From assembly GCF_004295345.1 (NCBI RefSeq), contig NZ_CP036200.1:1798001-1862000 (forward strand): a DNA stretch of 64,000 bases. Reading direction: 5' to 3'. The stretch's first letter is position 1. Each line of letters starts with the position of its first letter. The notes beneath the pieces are model-generated. The model saw nothing but the letters and a program-made list of their open reading frames with translations. It was not told the DNA's origin and made no database searches. Made by a program: the position numbers and the translations under genes. Shown one piece after another: positions 24,474 through 63,705 of the stretch. This stretch comes from Shewanella maritima. GTDB taxonomy: Bacteria > Pseudomonadota > Gammaproteobacteria > Enterobacterales > Shewanellaceae.

Positions 24474-25436
24474 TTAAGGTAGGCTCAAGCCCTCGACTTC
24501 AAAGCTCAGCGCCTGATTGGTAACAGGGTCGATATAACTTAACTTTTTAGCGAGCAGCTGCATTGGATTAACAAAATCTAGGGATTTGGGTTGCAGCTCA
24601 GGATAGAACTTATCATCAAGTAGCGGCATGCCAAGACTTTGCATGTGCACACGTAATTGATGCATCTTGCCAGTAATAGGGCTTAGCTCGAACAAGCCAT
24701 ATTCGCCTTTAATCTCAACCAGACTAATTTCTGAATGAGTATTCGCCTCACCTTCTGCTACCCGCATGGTAAAACTTGGCTCACCGCGCTTGAGGCGATT
24801 TTTTACCGTCCAGTGCTGAGGCAAAGCTAATTCGCCTTGCTGATATTCAGATAAAATTTGCTTAGTTAGCTTTGCCACCGCTTGATAGCGCTTATCAATG
24901 TTGCCATCTAAAAACAGCTGATGATATTGATGACGTGTTTCAGGCTTGGTCGTAAGCAGTATGATGCCAGCAGTGTCTTTATCTAGCCGATGTGCTGGTG
25001 CGACGGTATCAATACCCGTTGTTTTGCGCACTCGATGGATCAGACATTCATTAACGTAATTTCCGCCCGGCGTCACAGGTAAAAAATGCGGTTTAAACAC
25101 CACAATGCTGTGGTCATTTTTAAATAAAATCCGTTCTTTAAACGGCACCTTAGTTTCAAACTCCACCTCGCGGTAATAGTAAACGCGCTTAGTCGCAACA
25201 TAAGGCGTAGTGGCGCTAATCAAATTACCATCTTGCCAATGCACCTTGCCTTGCGTAATACGCTCTGCCCAAACTTCAGCTGAGATCTGATTAAACTTCC
25301 ACTTCAAAAAATCCGCCACAAATTCAAACCTATTGCCATTAAGCTCACTGTCGCGAGGCAACACCACATAAGAAGGCTGGGCAGCAATGGCAGATTGGTT
25401 ATTTTGCGGCAAAGAATTGTTAGAAGCAGAAGTCAT
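24474..25436 (-). CDS. RluA-family pseudouridine synthase
   Basis: This 320-aa RNA pseudouridine synthase has the catalytic motif HRLDKDTAGI with Asp152 and the downstream SPITGKMHQLRVHMQSLGMPLL. An N-terminal part (about residues 35-95: FLKWKFNQISAEVWAERI..GKVHW) reads like an S4-type RNA-binding domain in a divergent form. It is more diverged than RluC/RluD/TruC, so the RNA target is not known. Reads leftward alone. Confidence 0.88.
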   Translation of the reverse strand: MTSASNNSLPQNNQSAIAAQPSYVVLPRDSELNGNRFEFVADFLKWKFNQISAEVWAERITQGKVHWQDGNLISATTPYVATKRVYYYREVEFETKVPFKERILFKNDHSIVVFKPHFLPVTPGGNYVNECLIHRVRKTTGIDTVAPAHRLDKDTAGIILLTTKPETRHQYHQLFLDGNIDKRYQAVAKLTKQILSEYQQGELALPQHWTVKNRLKRGEPSFTMRVAEGEANTHSEISLVEIKGEYGLFELSPITGKMHQLRVHMQSLGMPLLDDKFYPELQPKSLDFVNPMQLLAKKLSYIDPVTNQALSFEVEGLSLP

Positions 25437-26283: not shown

Positions 26284-26367
26284 AACCCAAACGGGCTGCT
26301 ATTTACAGCATTAACACGGCTACTTCGATCTAACGCGATTTTAGTATTTGCCGCAAACTTATTTAAC

Positions 26368-26469
26368 TGTTGCTACAAACATAAGCTGACATAAGCCGAT
26401 TAATGCTTTCAATGGCTTAACCGAAAAATATAACCATAAACTGACATGAAATATAACCATAAGCTGACA
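26368..26469 (+). repeat. Tn7-like element end with three TnsB-type binding sites
   Basis: The end starts TGTTGC at 26368. Three direct repeats follow: TACAAACATAAGCTGACA (26374-26391), TATAACCATAAACTGACA (26429-26446) and TATAACCATAAGCTGACA (26452-26469). They resemble the TnsB sites of the Vibrio cholerae element Tn6677 (ACAACCATAAAATGATA). All point inward to the right. Three spaced sites fit a left end better than the denser right end. The five bases outside are TTAAC, the presumed target duplication. The 549 bases from 26284 to 26832 hold no gene. Confidence 0.85.
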
Positions 26470-26710
26470 AATTTCACCCGCAGCATTGAAATGAACACTT
26501 ATAACTGTTGTTTTCTTACAGATACTATCTATAGGCCTACCAACCCACTTTTGGACAGAAATGTGTTAGAGCAAGGAGTCTAAAGCTGGCTCGTGTGATT
26601 AGTAATGTATGGGCATCGATTAAAATCCCCCCCGCTTATTTCTGACTTCGAGTAGCTCAGTTCGAAAGCCTGCTTGCTTTAGCTTGCCCAGTTATTTAGC
26701 TGCCAATGTA

Positions 26711-26832: not shown

Positions 26833-27992
26833 TCAAGCAAAAGGGTATGGAAGAGCCAAGCCTTTCTCAATACTGCTGTCATACCAACTCCGAATACTTT
26901 CGTCTGTATGCAAATACCCCCAGTTGACCAACTTTTTATTATCGTCACCACTAAAAGCGTCCAACTGGGTACCCAGCTTTTTTAAATTCAAATAACTTTC
27001 AAACTTTTCGGGGGTAGCAAACAAGGAACAGTAATTTCTAAAATCTAACCTATTTTCAATACACCAATAAGCTCCGCGGTACTCTCCGGCTTGATAGTTT
27101 CTTGCCAGCGTTCGCTTTCGAAGTGCCCGCTGCTGGTTAACCATGATGTCTGACATCCTTAAAAACTTACCAATCCAGTTACCAAACCATCGCCAACGAC
27201 TATTCCAAGGAGCAGGGAAAGGCGCTCCCGCATCGCAACTAAAAACTGTGTCGTACTCTTTATTTTCCCCGTGCTTCCACAACATTTCCAACCCCATGTT
27301 GTCATAAAGACCACCATCACAAAATGCCAACTCGTTACGCAGCCTTTTAATATCAACTTCCGGGAGCTTTTGGTATTCACTATCCCTCCAAGTCCAGCTT
27401 GAACCATCAAGGAGAACTGGCGAAAGAAACGGAGGGAAAGCACTTGATATCGATACAGCTTGAGCAAGAGTGATGTCGTGATCGTTAGCACTTCCTATGT
27501 GGTAATCTCGAATAGACTCCCTCCCAATCCGTACACTTACGCCCGTATCAAGATTGGTGCCATAAAAAATAAACTCGGGAGCTCCCGGGATATGTGCAAT
27601 ATTTCTCAACTTAATCTTGCCGAACAATTTGGTTTCGTACTGCTTTCGAACACCATCAACCATCGTGCTTAGCGGATGAAGCAAATGATATATACCTTTC
27701 TTGGGACTGAAGATAGTACCAGAACAAAAGGCCACCAGTGGCTCGACGATCACCTCATGAAAATTAGTAGCACGAACCCGACCAGAATCACCTTCAATCG
27801 GTTTGAATTTTAACTCAGACCAATTCAACATTAGATACCCGGCAGCGATAGCCCCCCAGAAACTGCAGTAATCGTATCTAACTCGGCCAGTAAACCTTCT
27901 TCATTGAGCCTGGCAAGCGAACCAACCGCATAAAGTGTGGCCCTAAAACCACCACCAGAAAGTGCCAAACCTTTTTTATTCGCATCAACCAC
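26833..27992 (-). pseudogene. Patatin-like phospholipase, frameshifted in a C6 run
   Basis: Patatin-like proteins are Ser-Asp lipid acyl hydrolases; in CBASS (CapV) they attack the membrane of infected cells. This 386-aa protein begins at a GTG (27992) that overlaps the stop of the E2-E1-JAB gene. It has the oxyanion motif SGGGFRA (residues 12-18), the nucleophile elbow AVSGG (Ser45) and the Asp motif CDGGLYDN (Asp226). As read, a stop follows soon after Ser45: the frame shifts at the run of six C at 27852-27857. One more base restores VSGG-(A/S)-IAAGYLMLNWSELKF, joining the 332-residue main frame. The protein reads as the effector of the operon MBL, E2-E1-JAB, patatin. Whether the break is real, phase-variable or a read error cannot be told here. 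Confidence 0.82.
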
Positions 27993-30227
27993 GGGCGCCA
28001 CCTTTACCACTAACCCTCACCTCACCATGTGCGACAATCATCTGAAACGCTGGCAACCCGTCCACGGACATATTTTCCGCCACCCCCTCTAACTGATTTC
28101 TATCTAAGGCACTCATTCCTGCTGACCCTGTAGGATGACTATGCCACTCACCTATGTAGCTCACATTCGCCCCTGTTCTGCTCGCAATCCTATTAAGATC
28201 TTCCTCAACCCCTTCTGTACCGCGATCAAATGTGATAGGAGTACCCTCACTGTCCCATGGAGCGGGGCGCACATCGACCACATAAACATGCTTTCTCTTA
28301 AGATCTTGATATCCAACAAGAATACCACCAGTTTCATTTGGAAGCGCTGACGTACGCAGGCTATGTAGTTTCTGCTCTACACCCTCATCCCAGATAACCT
28401 TATACCCTGTTGCAGAGACATTATCCTGCACTCTCGACTTATGGACATCCACTTTAGTCAGGGCCCTCGCCCCAGTTCTCAAATCATCCTGCCAAATCAA
28501 AATTTGGGCGTCATCGGAGGAACTAGCCAGCCTAATTTGCTCAGCAAGCAAAGATGACAAGGATAAAACTCGGGCATGAGACATTACAGTTGATTTATCG
28601 CGACAAGAAACTCCTGAACGGAATCTCACAAGATCTTGAGTCAGATGGGTATTCCCAACATCCAACTCGATTAGCGCCCGATAGTATTGCGCCTCTAAAT
28701 GACTCAACCGACTTCGTCGCTTTGAATCCTCTACCAGTAGCACAGCATCATTTCCACTTGGAGCAAAGAAGGCTGACATGTGCCTAGGCACATTTTTAAT
28801 CCAACTAATTGCGCGTGGATAATCGAGCGAAGCACTGGCGTCCACAACCAAATTTGCGGAAGAATACACACCTTCATTGTTTGTTTTCGCAAATTCACAA
28901 GCATCACCGCTCAAGGCCGACACATTAGCGTCGTCAAAATGGAAGTTATGAACTCTCGCACAGTAAGAAGCTTTGTTCTGCCCTAAGCCATAGCAAGGCG
29001 CTACATGCCTGATGAAATTGTGAGGCCTAAAAATATCCTCATCAATGATGGACCACTGCCTCCAGCCACCTCTAACCCAAATATCAAGCAACGCCCCACC
29101 TAAGGCACCTACCCCTACCAAAACGCCTTTGCCCTGATTTGAATCGTATCCAGACTGCTCACAGCGTTTAGCAGATGATGGAGTAACCAACACCTCCATA
29201 GGCTCCAATCCGTATTGAGGTAAAACACCAGCCATCGGGCGGAGAGCCTCGCCTGGAACTTTATTCAAATGACCATGCGCGCCGAACCGAACTTCAAAAT
29301 CATCTGCCATCTCCCTCACAGACTTATTGCAATAAAAACCAATAATCTGCTCACGCTCAACAGAAGATGAATCACCACGACGAATAGGCAACGTAAAAAT
29401 GAATGCAGTATGCTCAATTTTCTCATCACCTTCGTCGGTAACAACAAACCTCAATAACCGGTCCCTTATCAATTCCACCACATGAATTCCGACGGAATCG
29501 AAGAGGTCAATCAAACCCTGAAGGTTATTAGGTGCCGAATACACTCTTCCATGAGTGACGTCACCACACGAGATCTCAAGCAGATTTACACTAACACCTC
29601 GATTTACTTCCCCAGCTAACCACTCAGCCTTGATAAAGAACCTTTCTTTCCCAGCAATTATTGGCTTTTCTGCCGAAACAGTGATCACTTGACCTTTTGC
29701 CAAACCTGCATGCAAATCATGAGGAATCACAATTGTCGTACTTGGGCTAAAAAACATTGGCTCTACGGCTTGGTCATCTGCATGCAGCTCACCAAGAGAG
29801 GCTTGCGTAAGCCACCACTTAGTACGCTGAATATGACGCTCAGGCGTCCAAGTCATCAAAGTAACGGATTCAGGCTCATCGTAGAGGCAAAGTGATTTAG
29901 GGTCCCCTGGGGGAGCAGGGTTTTGATGCATAGTCTCCGGAAAGTCCTTTCGCCAAGATACGGTAAACGGGATATTCAAACTACGACTGAAACCGTAAAC
30001 TACCCTCTCACAGTATTGAATACCGAAGACGTTTCTTGAAGGGTTTCGTCATTGCAAATATCCAACACAACACATTCATAACGAATGCCACCTTTCACAT
30101 ATCGAAAACAAGAAACCAACTCGCAATCTGGAGAACGCCTCACGGCGCTTAGCATCGACAAAGAACCGGGTAGACGAAGTTCCTCTGCGCCAATCGCCTC
30201 GCCTCGAGGGGTAAAGTACTCCGTCAC
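27985..30227 (-). pseudogene. Fused ubiquitin-type E2-E1-JAB protein, frameshifted in a C3 run
   Basis: This 747-aa protein (after one-base repair) carries three enzymes of ubiquitin-like conjugation in one chain. The N-terminal E2-like domain has its cysteine in KSLCLYDE (about Cys114) followed by WTPERHIQRTKWWL and GELHADDQAVEP. The central ThiF/E1-like domain has GVGALGG, IIDEDIFRPHNFIRH and a possible thioester cysteine in SGVSC. The C-terminal JAB/JAMM metalloprotease has ETGGILVG and EWHSHPTGSAGMSALD. As read, the first 75 codons (GTG at 30227) end at a TAG at 30000. Adding one G to the GGG at 30003-30005 gives VRGVVYGFSRSLNIPF and joins the 664-codon main frame. The upstream MBL gene ends five bases before; the patatin start overlaps the stop. 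Cap2 plus Cap3 of CBASS have the same three activities, in two proteins. Confidence 0.85.
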
Positions 30228-30231
30228 AAAA

Positions 30232-31383
30232 TCACCCTGCCCGGGCAGGAGCTGCTGCCGCTGTTAACATCGCTGCCGTTGCCGTTGCTGCCATCATGGA
30301 AACGCCTGCTTTTTCAATCTTAATTACAACTGGCTTGGGCTTTTTCTTTCCGCCGTTTTCCGACGTTACGACAAACTTACGACCTTTAACTTTCTCAAGA
30401 TACTCTTCGTAGCAGGCTTTTGCCTGGATATGAGGCGGTTGTTTTCTTTCCTTAGCATCTTCCCCGGTATCAAATGCTTGGGAGGAGCAAATCATATAAG
30501 AGCCTGACCTTCCCATCTCCAGCAACTCTTTAACCTTAGGTAAGGGCACAGTTTTATCTTCTCCCTTGTCCCCAGACAATGCCAACGCAAGGTAACTACA
30601 ATGATGCGGAATATTAAACAGATCCCAAGCCAACCGTTCTTCATTCTCTTTGTATTTCGTGATCGACACGATATCTTCAAGCACTTCTGCCTCTGAATCA
30701 CCAATGGCCAAGTAATCATAGATTTCATCATCCGCATTGAAGCGCACGTTAAATATCAACGAGGCCTCATTACGAACCTGCTTAATATCCTTCCCATCCA
30801 CTTCGCAATGCTTCATAAAGGGTGAGTGAACGAAAAATTCAACCCCGTCACCTTCCAAAGTAAAGGTATCAACAACAGTCCCGGCATCGATAAGATGAGC
30901 AGACAACTCATCCACTGTCATATCCCACCCATCAACCAACGTCACCAGATCGTCCGGGGTTGAAAACACCTTTATGCCTGACTTATTTTTCAGACGATGA
31001 CGCGCTTCCTGACGCCAAATGATGCTCTCTTCAGACTGATGGTCATTGTCAGCTGTCTCCAACAACATGGCCGCAGGAACCCAAAGCTCATCAATTTTTA
31101 CACGATCCTCGCCTTGGTATTTTGCAGCATGCTCAAGGTGAAAAAACTCAGTGCTACCATTGATGTGATCTTTGTCAGCATGAGTAAAAGCAACAACATC
31201 AAAACGCTCTTTGCCTGCATCCTTCAACTCTTGCCTGAGAGCCGCATTAATATCGTATTGAGGCGTCTTATCATTTTCAGCGTTACTCATCTGGTGGAAA
31301 TCCATCAGAATGAACCTACCACGAGTGCTTTTAATCAGGCTGGTATCACCATTCCCTACTGGATAAAACGTAACTGTGTGCAT
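30232..31383 (-). CDS. Metallo-beta-lactamase-fold hydrolase, first gene of the E2-E1-JAB operon
   Basis: This 383-aa protein has the metallo-beta-lactamase fold of the ComEC/Rec2-like branch: FYPVGNGDTSLI near the start, the metal motif FTHADKDHINGS (HxDxDH type) near residues 70-81, a later DYLAIGD strand and IPHHCS. I start it at the ATG at 31383 (MHTVTFYPVGNGD) with GGAGT five bases upstream. Such proteins cut phosphodiester or other bonds; the substrate is unknown. The last about 25 residues are nearly all Ala, Thr, Met and Gly (MMAATATAAMLTAAAAPARAG), an odd low-complexity tail. It leads the operon MBL, E2-E1-JAB, patatin; genes overlap or are spaced by few bases, so one transcript is likely. 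MBL-fold genes are known next to bacterial E1/E2/JAB genes (from recollection of comparative surveys). Confidence 0.8.
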   Translation of the reverse strand: MHTVTFYPVGNGDTSLIKSTRGRFILMDFHQMSNAENDKTPQYDINAALRQELKDAGKERFDVVAFTHADKDHINGSTEFFHLEHAAKYQGEDRVKIDELWVPAAMLLETADNDHQSEESIIWRQEARHRLKNKSGIKVFSTPDDLVTLVDGWDMTVDELSAHLIDAGTVVDTFTLEGDGVEFFVHSPFMKHCEVDGKDIKQVRNEASLIFNVRFNADDEIYDYLAIGDSEAEVLEDIVSITKYKENEERLAWDLFNIPHHCSYLALALSGDKGEDKTVPLPKVKELLEMGRSGSYMICSSQAFDTGEDAKERKQPPHIQAKACYEEYLEKVKGRKFVVTSENGGKKKPKPVVIKIEKAGVSMMAATATAAMLTAAAAPARAG

Positions 31384-32057
31384 AGTAACTCCGGATGTTG
31401 TAAAGCTTTTATGGGCATTAAAATATATATGGGGACGGAAAATCCAATTACAATAGGGGCTTACCAAACTGAAGTTTTACGAGACACCTTAGACATTTTT
31501 AATGGGGCGTAGCTCCCTATTATTACGGGCTTGAAAATCCATCCCAAACAATCTTGGGTGGCAATTTTAATTATTACAATCTAGAGTGACTGCACTCGGC
31601 AAGTGCTGAACGGTTACCGGTAGGTTTTGAGATTTCTTTTAGAAAAGAGTCCGGTTAGAGTTGACCAGAGCAGAGTTTAAAAACACTCAAAAGCATCTAA
31701 ATTTAATTACGGCTGTATACCTATATTGTTAGCCGCTTTACGGTAGTGCCAAACATTAGGCAAATAGATGAGATTTTGTAAGGCAACTAATTCGTTAGTT
31801 TTCGATTCACTAAATAAGTGCTAGCAAACTTTGGGGCAAAAACTAGTTTGAAATACTCCATTTAGAGGCCATTTCTCCTAGAGCTTGAATTTGAGGTTTG
31901 CCTTTAACGTTAAGCTTATGGCTACACTAAATCACTACTGAGACAGTAATAGTTACAACACCAAAAGAGTATTTGGCTTGTCGTAAATAAGCGAACTACC
32001 GCAGGTCTCATTGGAAGCTCTATTCGATGTATTTTTACATATTCAAATACGAATCTA
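31384..32057. other. 674-base AT-rich gap upstream of the MBL operon
   Basis: No gene is supported. The operon promoter should lie within the first 200 bases. There is no CD-NTase, ubiquitin-like or regulator gene here, which matters for judging the operon as CBASS. Nothing else was recognised. Confidence 0.5.
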
Positions 32058-32663
32058 TCACGCATCAAGTTTGATTAATGGCAATAAACGTACAGCATTT
32101 TTGGCGTCATCTAGGGCTCGATGAGCTTTCCCATCAAATGTTAACCCTGCATGTGATAAAGCACGCTTCAAGCCCGCTCTCGGTTTCAACCTATGTGTTT
32201 TGGAGTATTGTTTCTTAAGATCTATAAACTGCACAGGAGCAAATTCTGAAAGGTTATGATTGGCGCAGTCTATGTTAAGCTGCTTTAGGTCGTAACTCCC
32301 CCAGGTTGCAAGCGTATATTCTGGTGGCAACCAGTCAAGTAGTTGATTAAAGACAACATCAAATGTTGGTTTATTAGATAGCACTTCTTGAGTAATGCCC
32401 GTTAACTCAGTACAAAACTCACTGATATCTGGGTGAATTGTTGGCTTGATAAGCTGAGTAAAGGTTGAGATTTCCTTGAACCCATTTTTTGTAACAAGTA
32501 CTGCACCAATCTCTATTGTCTCGCGCTCATTTGGAGGAGTAGCGCCACCAGAGTCACATGTATGCTCAAGATCTAGAACCACTATTAAATCAACCGCCAA
32601 TATGTTTCCCATCTCATCTGATATGTTAGCTATTACGCTTTTGTATTCTGCTTGGCCCAGCAA
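32058..32663 (-). CDS. DEDDh 3'-5' exonuclease (ERI-1/KapD-like)
   Basis: This 201-aa DnaQ-fold exonuclease degrades RNA or DNA from the 3' end. Exo I is VVLDLEHTC with the first Asp and Glu, Exo II is ATWGSYDLKQLN, and Exo III is AHRALDDAKNAVRL with the catalytic His and last Asp. The TGITQE and FIDLKKQY segments fit ERI-1-like members. The frame starts with a TTG at 32663 with AAGGA four bases upstream; an ATG at 32612 would keep the whole domain. It overlaps the upstream 61-codon frame by 38 bases, so translation may be coupled, or the two could be one broken gene. It lies in transposon cargo, between the CRISPR array and the MBL operon. Confidence 0.8.
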   Translation of the reverse strand: MLGQAEYKSVIANISDEMGNILAVDLIVVLDLEHTCDSGGATPPNERETIEIGAVLVTKNGFKEISTFTQLIKPTIHPDISEFCTELTGITQEVLSNKPTFDVVFNQLLDWLPPEYTLATWGSYDLKQLNIDCANHNLSEFAPVQFIDLKKQYSKTHRLKPRAGLKRALSHAGLTFDGKAHRALDDAKNAVRLLPLIKLDA

Positions 32664-32829: not shown

Positions 32830-33018
32830 TCAATTATACTTTCGTAATAAATATTTTAAGAAAACCTTTCCTAATTTAGCAGAAAGAGGCTTTACTACTT
32901 TTTTGGCAGGATATAAATCCAAAGCGTGATGACAATCTGGTTGATCTTTGTCAGCTGCCTTCGCGGCAGGATAAAAGTCGAGTGCCTTACGACAATCTGG
33001 CTGATCTTTTTCAGCTGC
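32830..33018 (-). other. Open frame running through the distal CRISPR repeats, with a 20-residue internal repeat
   Basis: On the minus strand 62 codons are open from just after a TAG in the third repeat to a TGA at 32830. The frame has no start codon of its own. It encodes AAEKDQPDCRKALDFYPA.. then AKAADKDQPDCHHALDLYPA.. and ends KPLSAKLGKVFLKYLLRKYN. The peptide unit DKDQPDCxxALDxYPA recurs after 20 residues, exactly the 60-base CRISPR period, and most base differences between the units are synonymous. This suggests the distal array overlies the end of a once-coding sequence, or that both guides copy homologous coding DNA. I do not know the protein. Confidence 0.4.
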
Positions 33019-33154
33019 CTATTCGGCAGTTCACTATCAATTAGAAGATGGCAGTGTTATTCATAAATCTTCAGCTGCCTATTCGGCAGTTCACAGGCAG
33101 AGAAGAGTAAAGGACAATCTTTGTCAATCTTCAGCTGCCTATTCGGCAGTTCAC
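32887..33154 (-). CRISPR. Type I-F3 CRISPR array, three regular and one to two atypical repeats
   Basis: Repeats are 28 bases, spaced exactly 60 apart, transcribed on the minus strand away from cas6. R1 (33127-33154), R2 (33067-33094) and R3 (33007-33034) begin GTGAACTGCC and share the hairpin CTGCCGAATAGGCAG. R4 (32947-32974) is atypical: it begins TTATCCTGCC with stem-loop CTGCCGCGAAGGCAG. R5 (32887-32914) begins ATATCCTGCC and keeps only half the repeat, with a weak CTGCC..GTAG stem. The leader lies in 33155-33293. The two spacers next to the atypical repeats are related to each other (24 of 32 bases). In I-F3 elements, divergent repeats mark the guide for the attachment site, so these are the likely homing guides. 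There is no cas1/cas2. Confidence 0.9.
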
Positions 33155-33293: not shown

Positions 33294-33896
33294 TTAAACC
33301 ATATGAGACAGCTCTGGAACTGTGCCATTCAATCGCTCATTGGTAGCAAACCCATAACTACTAAACATTGGTTCCATCTGCTTATCGACCACATGTTTTT
33401 GAATGTGTAATAGGTAGTCTTGCTTACTTCCAACACTACTCATAGCAACTCGATGAAATACCTCGAACTCTCTCGGCGTAACGGACTTGCTAGGGTTAAA
33501 TATCTCTCCTCTAGCTAAGGCTCTTTTCTCTAACCTTTTTAACCGTCTTCTCGCCTCACCAACAAACATTTTTGCTATACCTTGATTACGCTTAAACCTC
33601 ACTTCTGCACAACCTTCTGGTACCAGCTCGACTTTACTAACCTCAAAAAAGCCGCACTCTTGCATATCTTTAAAATAACCTTGCAGCCTTAACCGATTTA
33701 ATACATCACTTTCTGAATACACAAAAGCAATGATATTTCCAATCGATTCATCAGACCATGCAGGAAAGCTCACTCCAATGCCAGTTATCCCATGTCTGCA
33801 AATATAACCATGTAATATTGAAATACATCGCCCTGTTAGTAAGGCTAAATTGGCTTTTTCTGGTAATAACTTAATGGTGAAATAATAGCGCGGCAT
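33294..33896 (-). CDS. cas6: Cas6f (Csy4) crRNA endoribonuclease of the I-F3 element
   Basis: Cas6f cuts the CRISPR transcript at the base of the repeat hairpin and stays bound to the crRNA 3' end. The 200-aa protein has the family start RYYFTIKLLPEKANLALLTGRC and LHGYICRHGITGIGVSFPAW (given in parts), including the histidine expected in the active site (LHGY). The arginine-rich helix ARRRLKRLEKRALARGE is the one that reads the hairpin, and the end FSSYGFA is conserved with V. cholerae Tn6677 Cas6. It starts two bases after the cas7 stop in the tniQ-cas8-cas7-cas6 operon, and the array follows 139 bases downstream. Confidence 0.93.
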   Translation of the reverse strand: MPRYYFTIKLLPEKANLALLTGRCISILHGYICRHGITGIGVSFPAWSDESIGNIIAFVYSESDVLNRLRLQGYFKDMQECGFFEVSKVELVPEGCAEVRFKRNQGIAKMFVGEARRRLKRLEKRALARGEIFNPSKSVTPREFEVFHRVAMSSVGSKQDYLLHIQKHVVDKQMEPMFSSYGFATNERLNGTVPELSHMV

Positions 33897-33898
33897 AG

Positions 33899-34984
33899 TT
33901 ATTTATCCGCTTTAGAAGTGATTTTTTCTTTAGATTTACCCTTTGCCTCTGCCTTTTTCTGAAACATGCCACCTTTGATTAAAACTGCAAACAAATAATA
34001 GATATTTGGCACAATCTCACCATCAGGAGTGCCAGCTAGTTTTCGTAACTCAGAGAGGTAATACTCAGAGTTAACAAGTAAAGAATAAAAACTTTTGTTA
34101 GAGTCAGGTGAGCGTCGAGCGATTCCTAGCTCCTTATCTGCACCATACTCGTGGATTCGTAGCCGCTTTGAACTATCGTCATCCCACCAATCATCAATCA
34201 GTTGAATTGCTGCACCTATTTTTACTGAATTAAAACTTACAGCCTGGCGACCATCAATGCATTGCACTTTCGTAAAACGCTTAGAAACTTCACCTGCCTC
34301 AGCTTTTTCTCCAAATGATTGGCTTGGGAAAATCTCCTGGCAAAAAACCGTTTCAAGTTTTGCCGTGACATCAGCGTGCCAAAATATACCTGGTTCCGTT
34401 AATGCTAAATAAATCTCATGGCTTAGCTCATCCAACACCAGCTGTTCAGCTGCGGGCCAACAACTTTCCCAATCAAGCAGTCGAGTATTGGCAATTTGAT
34501 AGCATTTTCCTGAGCTCGTTTTTATCTCGATGAGCGTATTTCCTGAGTTTTGATTACGCCACAGCCAGGTTCCTAGCAGTAAATTTTTACTGTATCGCTT
34601 GGCCAATTCTTTGTAGCCACCACACTCTTTAAACGCTATGGCCAACTCTTCAAGCAAAGAAAATACACTGTTATCACTGCAGCCACAGGGTTTTAAAGAG
34701 TTAGCCTGCACTCGTAATGAGAATCGACAAAAAACATGCTCAACATTAGGCGGTACGTAGCACTCTTCGATGGTGAGTGGATTACAATGAGCTAAGTCTT
34801 GTGGTGCTAGATTTTTCGGTTTGAACTGAGGGGTAAAAGCTTCCGTAAACCCGGCCTTTTGACCACGTATACGGTTGATTTCCGCTTCAAGTGGCACAAA
34901 ATCTTTTTCACTAGTTTGATAGAAAAAAACAGCTTTACTTGGGTATAAAGAGCGGTCGTACTTTAAAACATTACAGATCTCCAT
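33899..34984 (-). CDS. cas7: Cas7f (Csy3) backbone subunit of the I-F3 Cascade
   Basis: Cas7f forms the six-fold backbone that holds the crRNA spacer and, at one end of the complex, TniQ. The 361-aa protein matches the Tn6677 subunit at recognisable points: LGTWLWRNQ, the late VKIGAAIQLIDDWWDD with LRIHEYGADKE, and YYLFAVLIKGGMFQKK at the C-terminus. The N-terminus LKYDRSLYPSKAVFF corresponds to LAYERSIDPSDVCFF. A Lys-rich tail (KAEAKGKSKEKITSKADK) follows. It starts ten bases after the cas8/5 stop. Confidence 0.92.
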   Translation of the reverse strand: MEICNVLKYDRSLYPSKAVFFYQTSEKDFVPLEAEINRIRGQKAGFTEAFTPQFKPKNLAPQDLAHCNPLTIEECYVPPNVEHVFCRFSLRVQANSLKPCGCSDNSVFSLLEELAIAFKECGGYKELAKRYSKNLLLGTWLWRNQNSGNTLIEIKTSSGKCYQIANTRLLDWESCWPAAEQLVLDELSHEIYLALTEPGIFWHADVTAKLETVFCQEIFPSQSFGEKAEAGEVSKRFTKVQCIDGRQAVSFNSVKIGAAIQLIDDWWDDDSSKRLRIHEYGADKELGIARRSPDSNKSFYSLLVNSEYYLSELRKLAGTPDGEIVPNIYYLFAVLIKGGMFQKKAEAKGKSKEKITSKADK

Positions 34985-34993
34985 AACGCGTCC

Positions 34994-37099
34994 TCAAATC
35001 CGTTTCATTAGCATTGAGGTCTCGTTTATTTCCAGCATCCAGAATGCTCGATTAAAAAAGTGACTCATGCCTTGCAACCTTATATCAATCGCAGTTTTGC
35101 ACTCTGCTAAACCGATCGCAGATTCAGCATAACTGTGCAATGGCTCTATCGAATTAACACGCTCTTCAGGTCTGTTCAGCAACAAATAACCAGACATAAC
35201 AGGGTACAATGTGTCCTTCTCTTTAACGAGCTCCAACATCCCAGTTAGACTATCCACATGATACCTTGTTGGCATTATCCACTTACCTGATTGTGGTAAC
35301 CTTTTTAACTTTTCAAACAGAACAGCTTCGCTTCGATATACCCCGCACCAATCAACAACATCACCTATCTCAGGCGGATGTATACAACCTCCAGCAAAAC
35401 TAGCAGGCAAACTCGCTTTTAAAATCTCTGAAGTGCCATCAAGAATACTCAAATCTTCTTCGAAACCATCTATATGCACCACAAGATCAAACACTAAATC
35501 ACAATACTTATTGTCAATAATGCCAGCACGCCTAAATTGGTTTTCATTTGCCCCCTGCATACCATACTCAGGGAGTTTTGTGCCTGAAACTGGCGAGTAT
35601 TGGCGAATAAACCAAGAAAAGGAAGTTAACCTCAATTGAGTTCCTAATCGTTCATTTAATCGTCTTTGATAGCTATGTACCATTCCCCAAATGGCTGTTA
35701 GTGACGGAATACCTGCACAATATGGATTAGATAGAGCCTGAGCATCAAATACCCGAATAGACTTTAAATATAAATAACGCTGATGAATCTCTTCATCTAC
35801 TGTATTTAGGGCGATATCAGGCTCTTTAGACAATTGCACCAAAATCCACTTTAAACTATTTTTTAAGGGGCTCATCAGGCGCTGATGAAAAGCATATTTT
35901 TGTAAGTTTGTGCTGTTAGATAGTGTCGAATTCAACAAAGTAAAAATAGGTGGGAGCAAATCAACAAATGCTTCTTTTTTGGAAGTTAAAAACTGATGCT
36001 CAACTGTTCCGACAATACTAACTAAGTCACTTTCGTTAACCTGACTATCTTCTAGTTCCGCTCGCCACTCTATTAAAGGAGATAACCAGTCACCTAGACT
36101 AGTTCTGATTTGCCTCATACCGCTAACTTGAGCTCGCCTTCGTTGCTTTAAAGCGAGCTCAAAGCCTGCCGACAATAGGCCGTCTAATGCTCTTTTGAAT
36201 TGTGATGTAAACAAGGCCTGATGATTTAGAGCCGAATTTCCAGATTTAATCTTCAACAACCAAGAGTCACTTAACCCATACCTCTTTTTTCCTATTCTGG
36301 GTGGGTAATGAAGCACTCTATTACTACCACCAAGGGAAGCTGACAACTCACTGACCGAAGCTGGTCGTGTAAATTCAATATTGGTATATCGCCCTTGTTT
36401 AGCCATTGCAGTTTGCTGTATCTCAGCTTGCAACGAATGGCTAACGACGGGTGTTAATGCAAGATATTTATCTCTATAGGGAAATCGAACTTGAACGGAA
36501 TATTTATCAACACGGCTAGGGCTATCTTCATTAGGCAGTAAAGCTTTAACCCTGCTACACAAATTCATGAAGTGCTTCACAGGCATGCCTAGTTGCAAAA
36601 AAGCACCCTTCCACTCCTTAGGAACATCAGCCAAAAGAGTTGCGAGACAGCAAACTCGGCCTTGCCAGATAAAGTGGCATACAAATAGTTTAGCTAAATT
36701 CACCTTAGCGCTATCGTGCGACCACCCTAAAGAGCTCATACAGTTGGCACTACTGAGTACTTGTGGATGTAACTGAGGAGAGGCGGTAACTAACCTTTGC
36801 TTACTCACTCGTATATCTGGGTACTTTAAGTTGTGAGAATGCAACCACTTCACTTCAGTAATGCAAAAACCTAAGTGCTTCTCATTGTTCAATGTACGCT
36901 TTGCTAACGCACTATCAAGTAAGTCATCAACTTGTTTTCTAGGGTAAGTAAGATTTAGCAGAATCCGAAGGGTTTCGGCTTCATTACCTGTAACACATAC
37001 GGGTGATGAATAAGCAGCAAACGCTCTTCGTAATGCCGTGTTTCGCTCGGCAACGTCTTCGATATCGAGCAATGTTTGCAGATTATGATGCTCTACCAT
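34994..37099 (-). CDS. cas8: Cas8f-Cas5f fusion, PAM-recognising subunit of the I-F3 Cascade
   Basis: In I-F3 systems Cas8 and Cas5 are fused into one large subunit that binds the crRNA 5' handle and reads the PAM. The 701-aa length fits such fusions. The call rests on size, on its place between tniQ and cas7, and on scattered features such as the N-terminal HNLQTLLDIEDVAERNTALRRAFAAY region and a basic middle region (ALKQRRRAQVSGMRQIRTS, about residues 318-336). Its ATG overlaps the tniQ stop by seven bases, so the two are coupled. No stop or frameshift is seen in its 2.1 kb. Confidence 0.88.
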   Translation of the reverse strand: MVEHHNLQTLLDIEDVAERNTALRRAFAAYSSPVCVTGNEAETLRILLNLTYPRKQVDDLLDSALAKRTLNNEKHLGFCITEVKWLHSHNLKYPDIRVSKQRLVTASPQLHPQVLSSANCMSSLGWSHDSAKVNLAKLFVCHFIWQGRVCCLATLLADVPKEWKGAFLQLGMPVKHFMNLCSRVKALLPNEDSPSRVDKYSVQVRFPYRDKYLALTPVVSHSLQAEIQQTAMAKQGRYTNIEFTRPASVSELSASLGGSNRVLHYPPRIGKKRYGLSDSWLLKIKSGNSALNHQALFTSQFKRALDGLLSAGFELALKQRRRAQVSGMRQIRTSLGDWLSPLIEWRAELEDSQVNESDLVSIVGTVEHQFLTSKKEAFVDLLPPIFTLLNSTLSNSTNLQKYAFHQRLMSPLKNSLKWILVQLSKEPDIALNTVDEEIHQRYLYLKSIRVFDAQALSNPYCAGIPSLTAIWGMVHSYQRRLNERLGTQLRLTSFSWFIRQYSPVSGTKLPEYGMQGANENQFRRAGIIDNKYCDLVFDLVVHIDGFEEDLSILDGTSEILKASLPASFAGGCIHPPEIGDVVDWCGVYRSEAVLFEKLKRLPQSGKWIMPTRYHVDSLTGMLELVKEKDTLYPVMSGYLLLNRPEERVNSIEPLHSYAESAIGLAECKTAIDIRLQGMSHFFNRAFWMLEINETSMLMKRI

Positions 37100-38327
37100 G
37101 CTGATAAATAAACTCCATGAGGATTGCCACCAAAGCTTGCCTTGAACTCAATAACTTGCCGAAGGTAAAACACACCAATATGGGGTTCAATTCGTGATCT
37201 AAGTTTTTGCCTAAAGCCTGAGGTCAAAATACCTTCTTGATAAAGCCGGTAAACTTGTTCATGAGTAGCAGATAATATTACCGAGGTTTCAGCCACAGAA
37301 ACTAGCATATCGGCCACATTAGGCTTTTTAGATTTGGGGTTTGCGCTCACTAATTCGTGAAGGTAATCCATCATCGTTAAGTAGATAAAATGCGGCCTTC
37401 TACCCTCAGGTAACAAACACTGAGAGTCTAAAATTAAGTTACCGAAAATCGAACTAAAAGATGTGCGGTTAAACAAATCGATGAGTCTAGACTCCGCGCC
37501 AGCAGTTACATCATCTAATTCTTGATAAAAGTTAGCCGGCCAGTCATCAAAGTACTCGATAGAGCCTGAGTCGACATAGTTCTCATGTTGGCTATATCGC
37601 CTTTGATAGCAAACCAAAGCTGCAAATCGCTCAGTCACTGATATGTTCGTTGATAAAAACGGGTTAACCGATGAGGCGTCACCATTAAACAGAGTTCGAG
37701 CCAAAGTAAGTTCACTACTTTCTGCTTTATCGGTTTCAGCAATGGCTAGTTCAAAACCGCAACTGCAATGAGTAATGGATTCATGTTCAATGTAATTGAG
37801 GGGGATTTACAGTTAGGGCAGTGGTGCAATAACTTACATTCATGCTTAGGGCATGCTTGAACAGGCTTTAAATGCCAAGCCTGGCGAATATAAGGCTCTT
37901 CCCTCAAACAATCAGGGCAAACAGGCACACTCTCAACGCCTTCTGCACCAGAATAACGAAACAGACTTTGTGGAATATCAATACCACTGCGATGAACAGC
38001 TGTCATGCCTCCCACAAAGTTTCTATTTGAACGCAGTAACGCTAGTTTTTGTAACTCATGTGGTGGCAAATCAAGAAGGAACTCAAGCAAGTTTAGAGCT
38101 CTCATTCGGAAGTGACTGTTGTGTTTGGTGTGATACACATTTAAACGCTTTAATTCTCTCGGGAAAGCACCATAAGCCTCAAAATCTAACTCATGCAACT
38201 CTTCCAGAATAGCCAAACTCAATTGCTGATAACTATCAAAAAAATTCTCCGCTACTACTCGTAGCAGATAGCTCTCTAATGATTCATCAGAAAATGCACG
38301 CGCTTGTGGAGAAAATAAAAATGCCAT
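37093..38327 (-). pseudogene. tniQ: TniQ targeting protein, frameshifted in a G5 run
   Basis: TniQ links the I-F3 Cascade to the TnsC/TnsAB transposition machinery. The first 193 codons include the conserved start FSDESLESYLLRV, a zinc finger CPDC..H.C..H and HHCPNCKS. At the five-G run 37800-37804 the frame breaks and stops at 37746. Adding one base gives KSPLNYIEHESITHCSCGFELA, completing the second zinc ribbon, and runs on into the 203-residue C-terminal part ending VYLSAW, which aligns with the end of Tn6677 TniQ (FYVSRW). The repaired protein is 411 aa, close to the family's 394. If the break is real the element cannot use guide RNA for insertion. Confidence 0.9.
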
Positions 38328-53290: not shown

Positions 53291-56200
53291 CTAATTCGAA
53301 GTTATTGATTCTGAGTTAAAGCTGCTATGAGTATAAACAAGCCCGCTAGAAATAGGGGTTATCATTTTTGACACGCCATCTTTAAATATCACTAACGCAC
53401 CTTGACTACTAGAGTAGATTTTGACAACATTTTTAACTTCATCAAGAATATCTACTGTGCCAGAATACGAGCCATAATAGTATGTGCCATTAGCTTGAAC
53501 AAACATGGTTGCAACTCTACGGTTGTTACCAAAAGAGATGACTTCTTCAATAGGACCATACATATTCAATTTGTCTATCGTTGAACTTGGGTGATCATCT
53601 ACATAACTCTCTAATTTTCCGTCAGATTTTATACCTACAAAGCCCCATTGATTTAAGTGAACAAGTGTTTTCAGGTCATTTATTTCGTCAGGTCCACCGT
53701 TTGATAAATTCAAAAAACGTCCATCCTCTAGTTCAATTATTGGATAATCCACCCACCACGTTTCGTTACAATGCAACTTCGCAACTCCATTAATCGAACT
53801 ATTTAGATATGCATTAATCCTATTTAGGTACGTACTATAGATGTTATTAGTGTTAAGTTGTATCCCAGTAATAACAATGGTGCCATCTTCCATCAACACT
53901 ATTGCGCCATCGTCAAGTGGGCAAACATCAATGAAATCTCCAGAGTCTAGAAGGCTCTGAATTGCTGACGAAGGCGCTCCTGCACTTGGCCCTATGAATC
54001 TAGCGGTATTGTCGTAATGTTTTATTAAGAAGCCATAGATATTCAGTGAATATATGTCTTTTACATTTGTATAATGTTCTCCTTCGCCTTTGAAACCTGT
54101 ATCCATATAGTCGCGCCCCCAGATCCAAACACTGTCATCATTTAAAGTAGCAGCATAACCATATTGATTTGATTTTATATCAATGATTGGGTTTGTAATA
54201 TTAGTTTTTAGAGTACTTAAGTCCCCATCTGATAGACGACTAATTGTCGGGTTGATAGAGTTGCCAGTCAAGGTTAGCCACTCATCAACTAGCCCTCCAC
54301 TTCCGTTAACCAAAACAAAGCCTCTGTAGTTATTTGAATAAATTTCAATATCACTAACGTTCAGTAGTGATTTCATACTCGCATCAATGCTATTACCGTT
54401 ACTTCCCATATAGCCAAAGAAACCATTATTGTTTGTTTCAGCTAAAACATCCTTCTGCATGGGTGTGTACCAGAAACGTTTTAGAACTTTATGGCTAGAA
54501 TTTAAGTAGTCGACAAGCCTTTTAATATTTGTAGTATTGATGCTTTCGTTAAGTGTTTGATATACGCCCGCAACTTCAAAAATAATAGCGTTGTCGTAGT
54601 TTATATCATTGGCATCGGGCTCAGCTTCAAGCACTCGTATTAACTCGGGAGGCTCATATGTTCTAATGATATTTTCATTTACTTCATCATGACTCGCAAT
54701 CAAACGAACCGCCTTCCCGTACTCTTCAACACTAGGCGCAAAAGTATCTTGCTTGTATACATTGTCCCCAGCAGATGTGCTGATATCAAAATGACCATCC
54801 TCATTCATATCTACAATCCACACGTAATCAAAATCTTGATGAGTACAATATGAACAATAAGCCTCTGCCTCAGGAATAGATTCGCCTTTTTGTAGGTATG
54901 AGTCACTGCCATACCAAAGCCCACTCTTACCAAGTGTCACATACCTAATGAGCACTGACGCCTCTTTCGTCATACCATTAAAAGATACACGGAACCGACC
55001 ATTACCTTGTGCCGATGCTGTTAATACGCCACTATTCCACTCTAGACCTGAGTCAGTATAGGGCTCAGCAGTTAATGCTGATGAACTGCGGACATCAGTA
55101 TCCACACCAAGTCGTGAGACCGTTTTGGCAGTAAAATCTACTGTATCGCCGACTAAAACTTCAGCGCTAACAACTGTCACAACAAAGTCATCGATTGGGT
55201 CAACTAAGGTAACGGTTGTTGTTACCTCTTTCCCATCAAAGTGTGCCGTGATGTCAGTATCTCCAGCTTTTAGTCCATAAGCTTGACCGCCCACAACCAC
55301 CACTTCAGATAAATCTGTCTCCCAAATCACTTTATCGGTAACATTTTCAAAACCAGCAGGATCATCTTCATAGGTCGCATTAACTCTCACAGAGGTAAGT
55401 TCATGAACACTAAACGAAGCAGTGGTAATCATTGTTAGGCTAGAGAGTTTTCTCTCTTTAACAAATACAATGGCGGTATCACATTTGCCGCTGTGACAGC
55501 CTTCAATTTGTGCAGTCCCTTCTGCTTCAGCTGTAACAACACCCGTATTTGACACTGTCGCAACACTGGCATTAAGTGAGCGCCAACTAGTTGCTGCTAT
55601 TGGTTTTGTGTCACCATTAGTATCGTCATAAGTCATCGTCAGCAGTTGTGTTAAGCCTTTGTGTATTTCAACCACACCAGGTTCAACTTTGACGCTTTCA
55701 AGCTGTGCTGAACTAACACCAACAGGAAGTAATTTAGATACAACTGTATTGGTACCATCAGACCATGACACTGATATATTTGCGATCCCGGTTGCGTTAG
55801 CCTTGACTTTGCCAGTCGTTCCTAACCAGCTCACTGCAGTATCATTATCAGAGTCAAAAGCAAATCCAGTAGCAGAAGTTTCACATTCAAGAACTTGCTC
55901 ATCTGAGTATAAACAAAGCACCGGAACTTCAACTTCTTGACCCAATGCCAGCAACATAGGCACGTTATAATTTAACTGAATATCCAAAAGTTTTAGCGCT
56001 GTGATGTCTAACGTACTTGTGACAGACTCTGAGCCTACTGTTGCTTTGACAACAACGTCACCTTCACCATTTGCTTTCACTAGCCCTTTTTGGCTTTCTA
56101 AGGTCGCTAATGATGTCGAGTTACCTGAAGCATCTTGGAGCTCCCAAGTCGCAAGCTCAGTCAAATCTTTTGGTATACCGTTTGAGTACTCACCCCATAC

Positions 56201-59200
56201 AGTAAATTGCTGACTTTGCCCCACTGCAATAGATGGTGCGCTCGGGTTAATTGTTAACCCTGTCAGCGTGGCAGCCGTTACTTCAGCAAACTCTTCATTA
56301 CTTGGTTTACCGCCATATGTCGCATAAACCTTAGCTTCGCCTTCTTTCAGTGCATGCCAAATGCCATCACCATCAACAAAACCTATCAAATCAGTTGTAT
56401 TTTGAGGCTCTACTATCCATTTAACAAATTTCGCAGCATCCGCATCAAATGTGCCATCAGTGTAATACACCATTGCATATAGCTGTGCTTCAGCTCCCTC
56501 TGGTAAGCTAGCTGCTGAGGTGCCCCCTGCCGAAAGCTCAATGTGAATGCTTTCAACAAGCTTGTCTGCCATCACGTTAAGTGTTGCCACATCAGTTAGC
56601 GTATCCTTATGTGCAGTGATTTCGGCGTGTCCAACGCCTGTAGCAGTTGCAAGACCGGTATTGTTTTCAATTGTAGCTACACTACTTGGATTGTTCGAAA
56701 TCCATGTAACTTGATTGGTGATATCAACTTCATCACCGTTGTCAAATGTCCCCATTGCTTTGTATTGCAGGTTATGACCAACATGAATGGTTGTGTCTTT
56801 CGGCTCAACCGAAATACTGAGCAAGCTAGCGGCAGTAACCTTAACGAGCTTAATGTCTTTCTCTCCACCAAAATTCACATGAACATTTACATCGCCTGCT
56901 GCTTTACCATAAACATGGTTTTTGAAGTCAACGTCTGTAAATGTTGCAACATCTGTGTTGGTAGAGAGCCATGATGCTGCTGATGAAATATCAATCTCAG
57001 AGCCATCACTCATGTGAGCAACTGCACGTAAAGGCACGGTTAACCCTTGAACAAACGTTCTATCAGCGTCTGAAGTGGTGATTTCGACACTATCGACTGT
57101 TGCAGATGGAACGTTAATTATTGGTTTGTTAAGCGACGTCAATATTGTCGTGCCTGTTCCATCTACGTCATATTCGCCGAAAATAGTTGTAGAGCCTGGC
57201 TTATTGGCCGTGTATGTTTGGCTGGTTGCTTGAGTGTTGTTAACTACTTCACCATCATTAGTGATAAAGTACATATCACCAGATAAAGACTCCTGTAATG
57301 TGCCATCTGACATGACACCAATAAGTTTAACTTTGAGGGTTGTACCACTAAGCATGATCTTCGCACTTAATGGCGTCGTCTCTCCGTCTTCAACTAAAAT
57401 CACCCCAGATAAAGTTGCCGCCGTGGTGTTAATCACCGCCGTCGCTGTCACCGATGTGTCCGCCGTCAATGTCGCCTGAATCGTGATTGCCTTACCCGAT
57501 GCCGTTGCTGTCACCTTATGACCATCAATGGTGACGTCCTTGTCTTTCGAACTCCCTGCAATCGATAGCGGTGCAGCAGATGCATCCAAAATACTGGTCG
57601 TGTTGTCACTGTAAACACCCGCCACTGTGTAGTATTGGCTTTGATCTTTACCTAATGTGATATTACCCGGCACTAACTGAATACTATCCAGCGTTTTGTT
57701 CGTCACGCTCAGCGCAACTTGACTACTTGGCACACCACCAAAGCTTGCCTTGATTTTAGTGTCACCGACCGCTTCACCACGGATATAACCACCCGTCACC
57801 AACGCCACGTCTTTGTCTTCAACATCCCAAATCGCATTTGCTGTCACATCAACCGGCACTCCTGGCGCGCTCGTATAATATGCATTAGCAACGGCTGATG
57901 TAGATTGGCCCACTGCCAGTGTGCTTTGCGCTAACACCACTTCAACACGTGCCACCGAACCTGATAGCACTGACACGTTCGCCGTATCAAATTTACTGCT
58001 ATCACTGTTAAGCGTAGCGGTCACTACCGCATCACCCGCACTCGATACCGTCAGCTCACCATTGACTATGGTCGCGGTTGCATCGCCGCTCACAACCCAG
58101 CTCAAATCATGCGCGCCTAATTGCGCCGTTTGACCACTCGCATAATGCGCCGTTGCACTGAACACCTGGGTGTCATCCACGTTCATGGTCACCACTTTCG
58201 GACTAATGCTGATACGCTCTAACGCCACCACCATCACATTCACGTCCGCAAAGGCTTCCTGGCCACCAAAGCTCGCCTTAATGCGGGCATTCGACACACC
58301 CGCTTTACCGATAAGCACATTGCTCACCGTTGAGTCAAAGGCTATCTCACTCGCGCCACCTTCAACCGTCAGTGTCGCTGCATTGCTCACATCGGCTGTG
58401 GTGTTATCTGACATCAAGGCCTCAACCTTAATTGCTTTACTGCTGCCAAGCAGGAGGTTAATTGGATCAGGCGAAATACTTAGACTTGAGATACTCGCGC
58501 CCGATACCTTCACCGCCACCGACTGGCTGTCAAAATCAACGACTCCATCACCATCTGCATCATAATGAGCAAATAGCGTGGCATCACCTGCATCATTGGC
58601 TTTGATATTGGTATCATCCCAGCTTGCTGCATGCGCATTTGTCGTGGTGTAAGTGATATTGCTGGCATCAAGCTCTAACACGCTGCCGTCAGTCATCAAA
58701 CCGTACACGCGTGTCGCTAGCTCACCACCTTTTACTAGTGTTAGCGTTGCTGGTAACGGTTGGTTCTCACCCGCATTCGATAGGATAATTTGATCTAACG
58801 TTGCCGCCGTGGTGTTAATCACCGCCGTCGATGTCACCGACGTGTCCGCCGTTAATGTCGCCTGAATCGTGATTGCCTTACCCGATGCCGTTGCTGTCAC
58901 CTTATGACCATCAATGGTGACGTCCTTGTCTTTCGAACTCCCTGCAATCGATAGCGGTGCAGCAGATGCATCCAAAATACTGGTCGTGTTGTCACTGTAA
59001 ACACCCGCCACTGTGTAGTATTGGCTTTGATCTTTACCTAATGTGATATTACCCGGCACTAACTGAATACTATCCAGCGTTTTGTTCGTCACGCTCAGCG
59101 CAACTTGACTACTTGGCACACCACCAAAGCTTGCCTTGATTTTAGTGTCACCGACCGCTTCACCACGGATATAACCACCCGTCACCAACGCCACGTCTTT

Positions 59201-63679: not shown

Positions 63680-63705
63680 AAAGTACACCCTTAATCTTTG
63701 TGCAA

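What the first reader, a model, noticed from the sequence alone, without database searches (positions are those of the whole stretch)
26833..31383. Operon of MBL-fold protein, fused E2-E1-JAB and patatin phospholipase as transposon cargo
The three genes overlap or nearly touch, so they act together. Patatin phospholipase is a known CBASS effector, and E2-E1 plus JAB are known CBASS accessory proteins, yet no CD-NTase is near. It also differs from Bil operons, in which E1, E2, JAB and a ubiquitin-like protein are separate. No ubiquitin-like gene is seen. A conjugation machine that controls or activates a lipase, with an MBL hydrolase in place of the nucleotide cyclase, would be a new defence arrangement.
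Basis: partly seen in the sequence, partly recalled or inferred. Interest (0 to 1): 0.85.

Follow-up and report, generated by a model that had tools for sequence, protein, structure and literature searches.

The report
Bacterial hydrolase with ubiquitin-style tail
A mobile set of bacterial genes, present here as a broken copy, looks built to attach a DNA-cutting-type enzyme to other proteins in the way ubiquitin is attached, next to a gene that may damage the cell membrane, probably as a defence against viruses.

Summary
The three genes are real, but this copy is broken: E2-E1-JAB and patatin are each split between reading frames, inside a decayed 54-kb CRISPR-guided transposon. [quoted passage not shown] In 80 public loci, 77 have the MBL gene directly upstream of E2-E1-JAB. 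What I did not find in print: (1) the MBL protein ends in a ubiquitin-style tail. R-A-G is as conserved as its metal site (77, 75 and 77 of 78 sequences), follows a variable, predicted-disordered linker, and in 20 of 77 carries 2-9 extra residues, as pro-ubiquitin does. Controls: 4 of 819 other ORFs, 0 of 16 second MBL proteins. (2) The neighbouring effector gene is swappable: patatin in 39 of 80, small multi-TM proteins in 37. One genome fuses E2-E1-JAB to patatin. (3) WYL or CapP regulators sit at 23 of 80. No SMODS-type CD-NTase is in the window's genome or the 80 loci. Best reading: the MBL protein takes the CD-NTase's place as the protein that E2-E1 conjugates and JAB matures or removes. 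Conjugation is inferred, not shown.

The parts
30232..31383 (-). MBL-fold protein, ComEC-type, 383 aa; proposed conjugated protein
   Evidence: AF2 model pLDDT 89.3; Foldseek best hit ComEC MBL domain 9ic4, E 5e-13; profile vs 9ic4 E 1.3e-7
31165..31182 (-). MBL metal-site motif H68-x-D70-x-D72-H73
   Evidence: Invariant in 49 sequences; aligned with ComEC H-x-D-x-D-H
30235..30243 (-). Codons of the C-terminal R381-A382-G383 tail
   Evidence: R 77, A 75, G 77 of 78 sequences; synonymous codons vary
27985..30227 (-). E2-E1-JAB triple-module gene, split between two reading frames in this copy (pieces 30042-30227 and 27988-30051 by homology)
   Evidence: intact homologues about 747 aa
29887..29889 (-). 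E2 catalytic Cys codon (C31 of the main ORF; C114 in P0003)
   Evidence: Invariant; role by homology
28603..28605 (-). Presumed E1 catalytic Cys codon (C459 of the main ORF; C542 in P0003)
   Evidence: Invariant; role by analogy with Cap2
28054..28383 (-). JAB domain; E, H-S-H, S, D motif conserved
   Evidence: Pfam PF14464
26833..27998 (-). Patatin-like phospholipase gene, split between two reading frames in this copy
32946..33154 (.). Short CRISPR array, 60-bp period, 4 repeat copies, one degenerate
33294..38327 (-). I-F3 CAST: Cas6f, Cas7f, Cas8/5f, and TniQ split between frames

Best explanation
The operon is a broken copy of a widespread mobile defence-type system that works like type II CBASS with a ComEC-type MBL hydrolase in place of the cyclic-nucleotide synthase. 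The MBL protein is the conjugated protein. Its disordered C-terminal tail ends in a near-invariant R-A-G. JAB trims any extra residues after the glycine. The E1 domain adenylates the glycine and passes it by thioester to the E2 cysteine, and the MBL protein is joined to lysines of target proteins; JAB can also undo this. Conjugation positions or switches on the MBL enzyme (probably a nuclease or phosphodiesterase) during infection. Its product or the conjugate triggers a swappable membrane effector, here a patatin phospholipase, elsewhere a small multi-TM protein, which damages the membrane. Shown: gene set, conserved tail, intact catalytic residues in relatives, effector exchange, regulators, mobility, and that this copy is split between frames. 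Inferred: adenylation, conjugation, trimming, what the MBL cuts, how the effector is triggered, and defence itself.
For: MBL directly upstream of E2-E1-JAB in 77 of 80 loci and next to it in 5 of 5 genomes with the MBL among 274 class genomes, the window's own included. R-A-G: 77, 75 and 77 of 78; 15 of 16 loci whose MBL is under 33% identical still have it. Of 77 locus proteins 54 end in RAG, 20 have 2-9 more residues, 3 lack it. Of 120 listed homologues 114 have [RK][AV]G in the last 24 residues: 80 terminal, 33 with 1-7 more, 1 with 21 more. Controls: 4 of 819 other ORFs in the same loci have RAG in the last 24 residues and 0 end in it; 0 of 16 second MBL proteins. Codons vary, 47 different 9-mers in 74, so selection acts on the protein. 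Tail pLDDT under 50 on a model of 89.3. E2 Cys, E1 Cys and JAB motif residues invariant in 38 sequences. Closest solved structures are Cap2 with a CD-NTase. Precedent: CD-NTase conjugated through its C-terminal Gly/Ala, a residue conserved in operons with full-length Cap2 and Cap3 but not in other architectures (PMC10097602, passages). Effectors: patatin 39, multi-TM 37 of 80. E2-E1-JAB-patatin fusion. WYL at 17 and CapP at 6 of 80 loci.
Against: No biochemistry. Three of 77 MBL sequences lack R-A-G (L037 ends KLG, L074 ends RHG, L065 is a fragment), and two divergent class genomes lack it (L103 ends GFGSGFQ, L105 ends STYG). 54 of 77 need no trimming, so JAB maturation can apply only to a minority. 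TM effector families were defined from the same loci, so their count of 37 is partly circular. Two E1-JAB relatives in the class sample stand without a detected MBL (G015, G036). No WYL or CapP gene was seen beside the window's copy. The copy is broken, so nothing can be said of its own activity.
Confidence: 0.7

Rival explanations
1. The R-A-G tail is a docking or assembly signal that inserts into the E1 site without being conjugated, so the E2-E1-JAB protein regulates MBL activity by binding only.
For: Tail conservation alone shows recognition, not chemistry.
Against: E2 Cys, E1 Cys and JAB motif residues are invariant in 38 sequences; the chain ends at the glycine in 54 of 77 locus proteins; the Cap2 precedent is covalent.
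Confidence: 0.12
2. The MBL protein is an ordinary accessory hydrolase, and E2-E1-JAB conjugates an unlinked ubiquitin-like protein encoded elsewhere.
For: Iyer 2006 (section 14) paired the genes without naming a substrate in that section; other operon types there have their own Ub-like gene.
Against: It leaves the tail unexplained; in the E. coli plasmid locus examined only a TM gene, a WYL gene, the MBL and E2-E1-JAB stand together.
Confidence: 0.1
3. It is a partial type II CBASS that uses a CD-NTase elsewhere in the genome.
For: SMODS genes are over the cut-off in 17 of 79 host genomes.
Against: None in the window's genome; none over the cut-off in 62 of 79 genomes; all 20 SMODS places lie on contigs of other lengths than the locus contigs and none of the 20 matches the 80 loci by blastn or tblastn. 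PF18144 may not cover every cyclase clade.
Confidence: 0.04
4. R-A-G is conserved because of DNA signals for starting the next gene (ribosome binding) and not for the protein.
For: The MBL stop and the E2-E1-JAB start often overlap.
Against: All six Arg, four Ala and four Gly codons are used, 47 different 9-mers in 74; the distance from R-A-G to the possible starts varies.
Confidence: 0.02

Closest known systems
Operon type 6a of Iyer, Burroughs and Aravind 2006 (PMC1779556; passages and section 14 read)
   Same: Triple-module E2-E1-JAB protein next to a specialised metallo-beta-lactamase gene; proteobacteria and one Gram-positive in its table
   Different: The section read describes a simple, usually two-gene operon; patatin has 0 occurrences in that paper. 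The parts read do not speak of an MBL tail, effector exchange or regulators
[quoted passage not shown] passages read)
   Same: Very probably this system; reported at 7 capK-capS loci
   Different: One phrase in the passages seen; no anatomy or mechanism there
Type II CBASS (CD-NTase, Cap2, Cap3, effector)
   Same: E2-E1 homologous to Cap2, JAB, conserved C-terminal glycine on the partner enzyme, phospholipase or membrane effector, WYL or CapP regulators at some loci
   Different: MBL hydrolase in place of CD-NTase; JAB fused to E2-E1; three-residue R-A-G motif and tail extensions in some; patatin not matched by PADLOC models
Bil and Bub bacterial ubiquitination operons (recalled, and named in PMC13373217 passages)
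   Same: Ubiquitination-type enzymes in defence-type operons; CapW and CapH-CapP regulators (Bub)
   Different: No beta-grasp ubiquitin-like protein seen here; E2, E1 and JAB are one polypeptide
Trypsin-MBL nuclease pairs (HamM, canu; PMC12799240, passages read)
   Same: ComEC-like MBL nuclease recruited to immune systems; PADLOC LmuA and RTasMBL models match the MBL
   Different: Partner is a conjugation enzyme with a JAB peptidase, not a trypsin-like protease

Membership tests
Operon type 6a (Iyer 2006) / MBL operons | Single protein with E2, E1 and JAB in that order | tested here: met
   Pfam; model (this copy split between frames)
Operon type 6a (Iyer 2006) / MBL operons | Adjacent specialised metallo-beta-lactamase gene | tested here: met
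   77 of 80 loci
Type II CBASS | CD-NTase in the operon | tested here: not met
   No SMODS in the window's genome; none in the 80 loci. Other cyclase clades not tested
Type II CBASS | Cap2-like E2-E1 | tested here: met
Type II CBASS | JAB (Cap3) as a separate gene | tested here: not met
   JAB is fused
Type II CBASS | Conserved C-terminal Gly/Ala on the partner enzyme | tested here: met
   On the MBL protein: G 77 of 78
Type II CBASS | Effector activated by a cyclic nucleotide | not testable with these tools
   Patatin of L002 has no PADLOC match at 1e-3 and no PDB match at 0.01
Bil | Ubiquitin-like beta-grasp protein gene | tested here: inconclusive
   None seen in the window operon by ORF list and Pfam; fold search for small neighbours not done
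Bil | Separate E1, E2 and JAB genes | tested here: not met
[quoted passage not shown]
   Pfam of E2-E1-JAB and patatin shows none
I-F3 CAST cargo | Lies in one insertion together with Tns and TniQ-Cas genes | tested here: met
   Insertion absent in 10 of 10 relatives; TnsA; Cas genes and TniQ. Transposon ends not mapped

The most novel reading that the evidence does not exclude
A metallo-beta-lactamase-fold enzyme, unrelated to ubiquitin or to cyclic-nucleotide synthases, is itself a protein modifier: in some members made as a pro-protein and matured at R-A-G by the JAB domain of its own E2-E1-JAB partner, and conjugated to lysines during infection. Ubiquitin-type tagging in bacteria would then be a general way to prime different immune enzymes by giving each a short tail.
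Probability: 0.65. Interest if true: 0.85.

Novelty: new variant of a known kind. Interest (0 to 1): 0.64.

Why it matters
If true, type II CBASS is not a special case: the same E2-E1-JAB chemistry works on an enzyme of a quite different fold, so what bacteria tag is set by a short tail and not by a ubiquitin fold. It gives a substrate and a testable mechanism to an operon described in 2006 for which I found no proposed substrate in the texts I could read. It adds a widespread candidate defence system with swappable membrane effectors: homologues of the MBL are on 247 plasmid records (in 4 of 4 regions opened an E2-E1-JAB-type gene is next to it), and an E. coli version of the pair matches in 31 of 5426 complete E. 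coli genomes, so it can be studied in laboratory E. coli.

Tried and rejected
Partial CBASS: rejected for SMODS-type cyclases. Ribosome-binding site as the cause of the tail: rejected. Tail as a property of MBL proteins in general: rejected, 0 of 16 second MBLs. Presence in phage genomes: no match by tblastn in the phage collection. PADLOC scan of neighbours for a CD-NTase: 25 of 287 and 25 of 27 families are shown, so it could not decide; I used whole-genome SMODS searches instead. Only 177 of the 335 neighbour genes listed, plus 8 from plasmid loci, were given to that scan. Regulators: a first count of 8 CapP-like loci by clustering was cut to 6 after each was scanned; L026 and L045 are closer to RmrA-type models. 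L018 looked like an MBL-E2-E1-JAB fusion of 1144 aa, but no MBL similarity was found there. L013 lacks the MBL (a shortened acetate-kinase-like ORF, named by eye, ends PPRAG there) and L032 starts near a contig edge. Predicting MBL together with E2-E1-JAB was not possible with the tools. The VIA-align look did not list JAB structures; that says nothing against the domain. Papers that might already describe the tail were not held (taken from recall or a reference list to be Chambers 2024, Gong 2025 and Burroughs 2015) or not looked up (Ledvina 2023, Ye 2026), so 'not found in print' rests on searches.
Full report
WHAT IS THERE. On the minus strand the window holds an MBL-fold gene (30232-31383), a gene for one protein with E2, E1 and JAB domains (about 30227-27985) and a patatin gene (about 27998-26833). 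The genes abut or overlap. In this copy the E2-E1-JAB gene is split between two frames near its N-terminus and so is patatin; intact relatives of E2-E1-JAB are about 747 aa. The window's genome is one contig of 4.72 Mb with this single copy of the fused protein.

WHERE IT SITS. Cas6f, Cas7f, Cas8/5f and a split TniQ of a type I-F3 CRISPR-associated transposon lie at 33294-38327, with a short 60-bp-period array at 32946-33154. TnsA is found at window coordinate about 79.1 kb, outside the window; next to it are a split tnsB-like and a shortened tnsC-like frame, named by eye only. The RluA-type gene at 24474-25436 and a Lon-like gene at about 79.6 kb (both named by eye) are 54 kb apart here, but 172-317 bp apart (hit to hit) in 10 of 10 genus relatives examined (the ten were picked from those that matched the left flank). 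So the operon rides in a decayed 54-kb insertion. I did not map the transposon ends.

THE SET RECURS. A scan of genome contigs with a 23-sequence profile gave 439 relatives; the best 80 were kept. In 77 of 80 the MBL gene is directly upstream of E2-E1-JAB (in L053 and L065 it is broken or in pieces). The three others: L013 (MBL missing, an ORF ending PPRAG in its place), L018 (none found), L032 (near a contig edge). In 274 genomes of the same class, the window's own included, 5 carry the MBL and in all 5 the fused E2-E1-JAB is next to it. Two class genomes (G015, G036) carry an E1-JAB relative without a detected MBL. Homologues of the MBL are on 247 plasmid records, Klebsiella 123, Escherichia 25; four of these regions were opened and all four have a ThiF/Mov34-type gene next to it. 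There is no match in the phage collection. The E. coli pair from pSE11-2 matches in 31 of 5426 complete E. coli genomes, 29 of them over at least 80% of the query.

THE TAIL. The MBL protein ends in R-A-G after a variable linker. In 78 sequences (the window and 77 loci) R is kept in 77, A in 75 and G in 77, as well as the metal-site residues. Of the 77 locus proteins 54 end in RAG, 20 have 2-9 more residues after it, and 3 lack it in the last 30 residues (L037 ends KLG, L074 ends RHG, L065 is a fragment). Some end in a second RAG. Of 120 database homologues listed, 114 have [RK][AV]G in the last 24 residues (100 strictly RAG), 80 exactly terminal, 33 with 1-7 residues more and one with 21 more. 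In 15 of 16 loci whose MBL is under 33% identical to the window's the motif is present. Controls: 4 of 819 other non-overlapping ORFs of 120 aa or more in the loci have RAG in the last 24 residues and none ends in it; 0 of 16 second MBL proteins from the same loci have it. Codons are free to vary: 47 different 9-mers in 74. Two more distant class members lack the motif: L103 ends GFGSGFQ, L105 ends STYG. The AlphaFold2 model of the MBL has mean pLDDT 89.3, with residues 368-379 and 381-383 under 50: a floppy tail.

THE EFFECTOR GENE IS SWAPPABLE. Of 80 loci 39 have patatin, 37 have one of five small multi-TM families (some with a second MBL; downstream, upstream or divergent), 2 only a second MBL and 2 none (TM counts by a hydropathy rule). 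The TM families were defined from these loci, so this count is descriptive. Two loci have both patatin and a TM gene (L009, L040). In one class genome E2-E1-JAB and patatin are one protein of 1178 aa (Pfam E2 1.6e-18, ThiF 6e-20, JAB 3e-8, patatin 1e-18). Patatin is not matched by PADLOC models, so it is not a plain CapV. WYL-domain regulators sit upstream at 17 loci (all 17 match Pfam WYL and a PADLOC WYL model) and CapP is the best model at 6. CapW and CapH-CapP answer to DNA damage next to their operons (PMC13373217, passages). None was seen beside the window's copy.

NO CYCLASE. The window's genome has no SMODS match. Of the 79 genomes behind the 80 loci 17 have one over the cut-off, at 20 places. 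All 20 were fetched: each is on a contig of another length than the locus contig, and none matches the 80 loci by blastn or, as protein, by tblastn. PF18144 may not cover every cyclase clade.

MECHANISM. Shown: gene set, tail, intact catalytic residues in relatives, exchange of effectors, regulators, mobility. Inferred: JAB trims, E1 adenylates, E2 conjugates the MBL; this primes the MBL enzyme; the effector then attacks the membrane. I give 0.7 to this reading.

WHAT IS NEW. [quoted passage not shown] In ten library searches I found no text on the MBL tail, on patatin or TM effectors with it, or on the fusion. Several key papers could not be read, so the tail may already be known to specialists.

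Noticed in passing
window 26361-26475, 26541-26627 and 31569-31847: Dispersed repeats on both sides of the operon match many other places in genomes of the same genus; they may have helped it move.
   Followed up: no
window 27985-29979 against L001 7746-9989: Between the window and Shewanella insulae the MBL is 86% and patatin 85% identical but E2-E1-JAB only 59%, as if the middle gene had been exchanged or evolves faster.
   Followed up: partly
L103 8469-12005: Natural fusion E2-E1-JAB-patatin, 1178 aa, next to a divergent MBL without the R-A-G tail.
   Followed up: partly
L010 6318-7873 and similar loci: Second MBL protein (PADLOC PDC-M48B-like) with a 4-TM protein as an effector module; the TM family also occurs upstream or divergently in other loci.
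   Followed up: partly
L014, L026, L033, L037, L046, L077 MBL ends: Doubled tail motifs such as PPRAG-YRAG and PPRAG-LESRPIRAG, as if a terminal motif were selected again after an extension.
   Followed up: no
L026 4599-5663, L045 5046-6287, L011 4841-5956: Upstream HTH/M78 genes closer to RmrA or PD-Lambda-2 models than to CapP.
   Followed up: no
window 53291-63688: 3465-aa protein with long near-identical repeats inside the island.
   Followed up: no
L113 9674-11527 (window coordinate about 73.7-75.5 kb): Pair that looks by eye like IbrB (ParB-like) and IbrA (PAPS-reductase-like) near the Tns genes.
   Followed up: no
window 32058-32663: DEDDh exonuclease gene between the CRISPR array and the MBL operon.
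   Followed up: no
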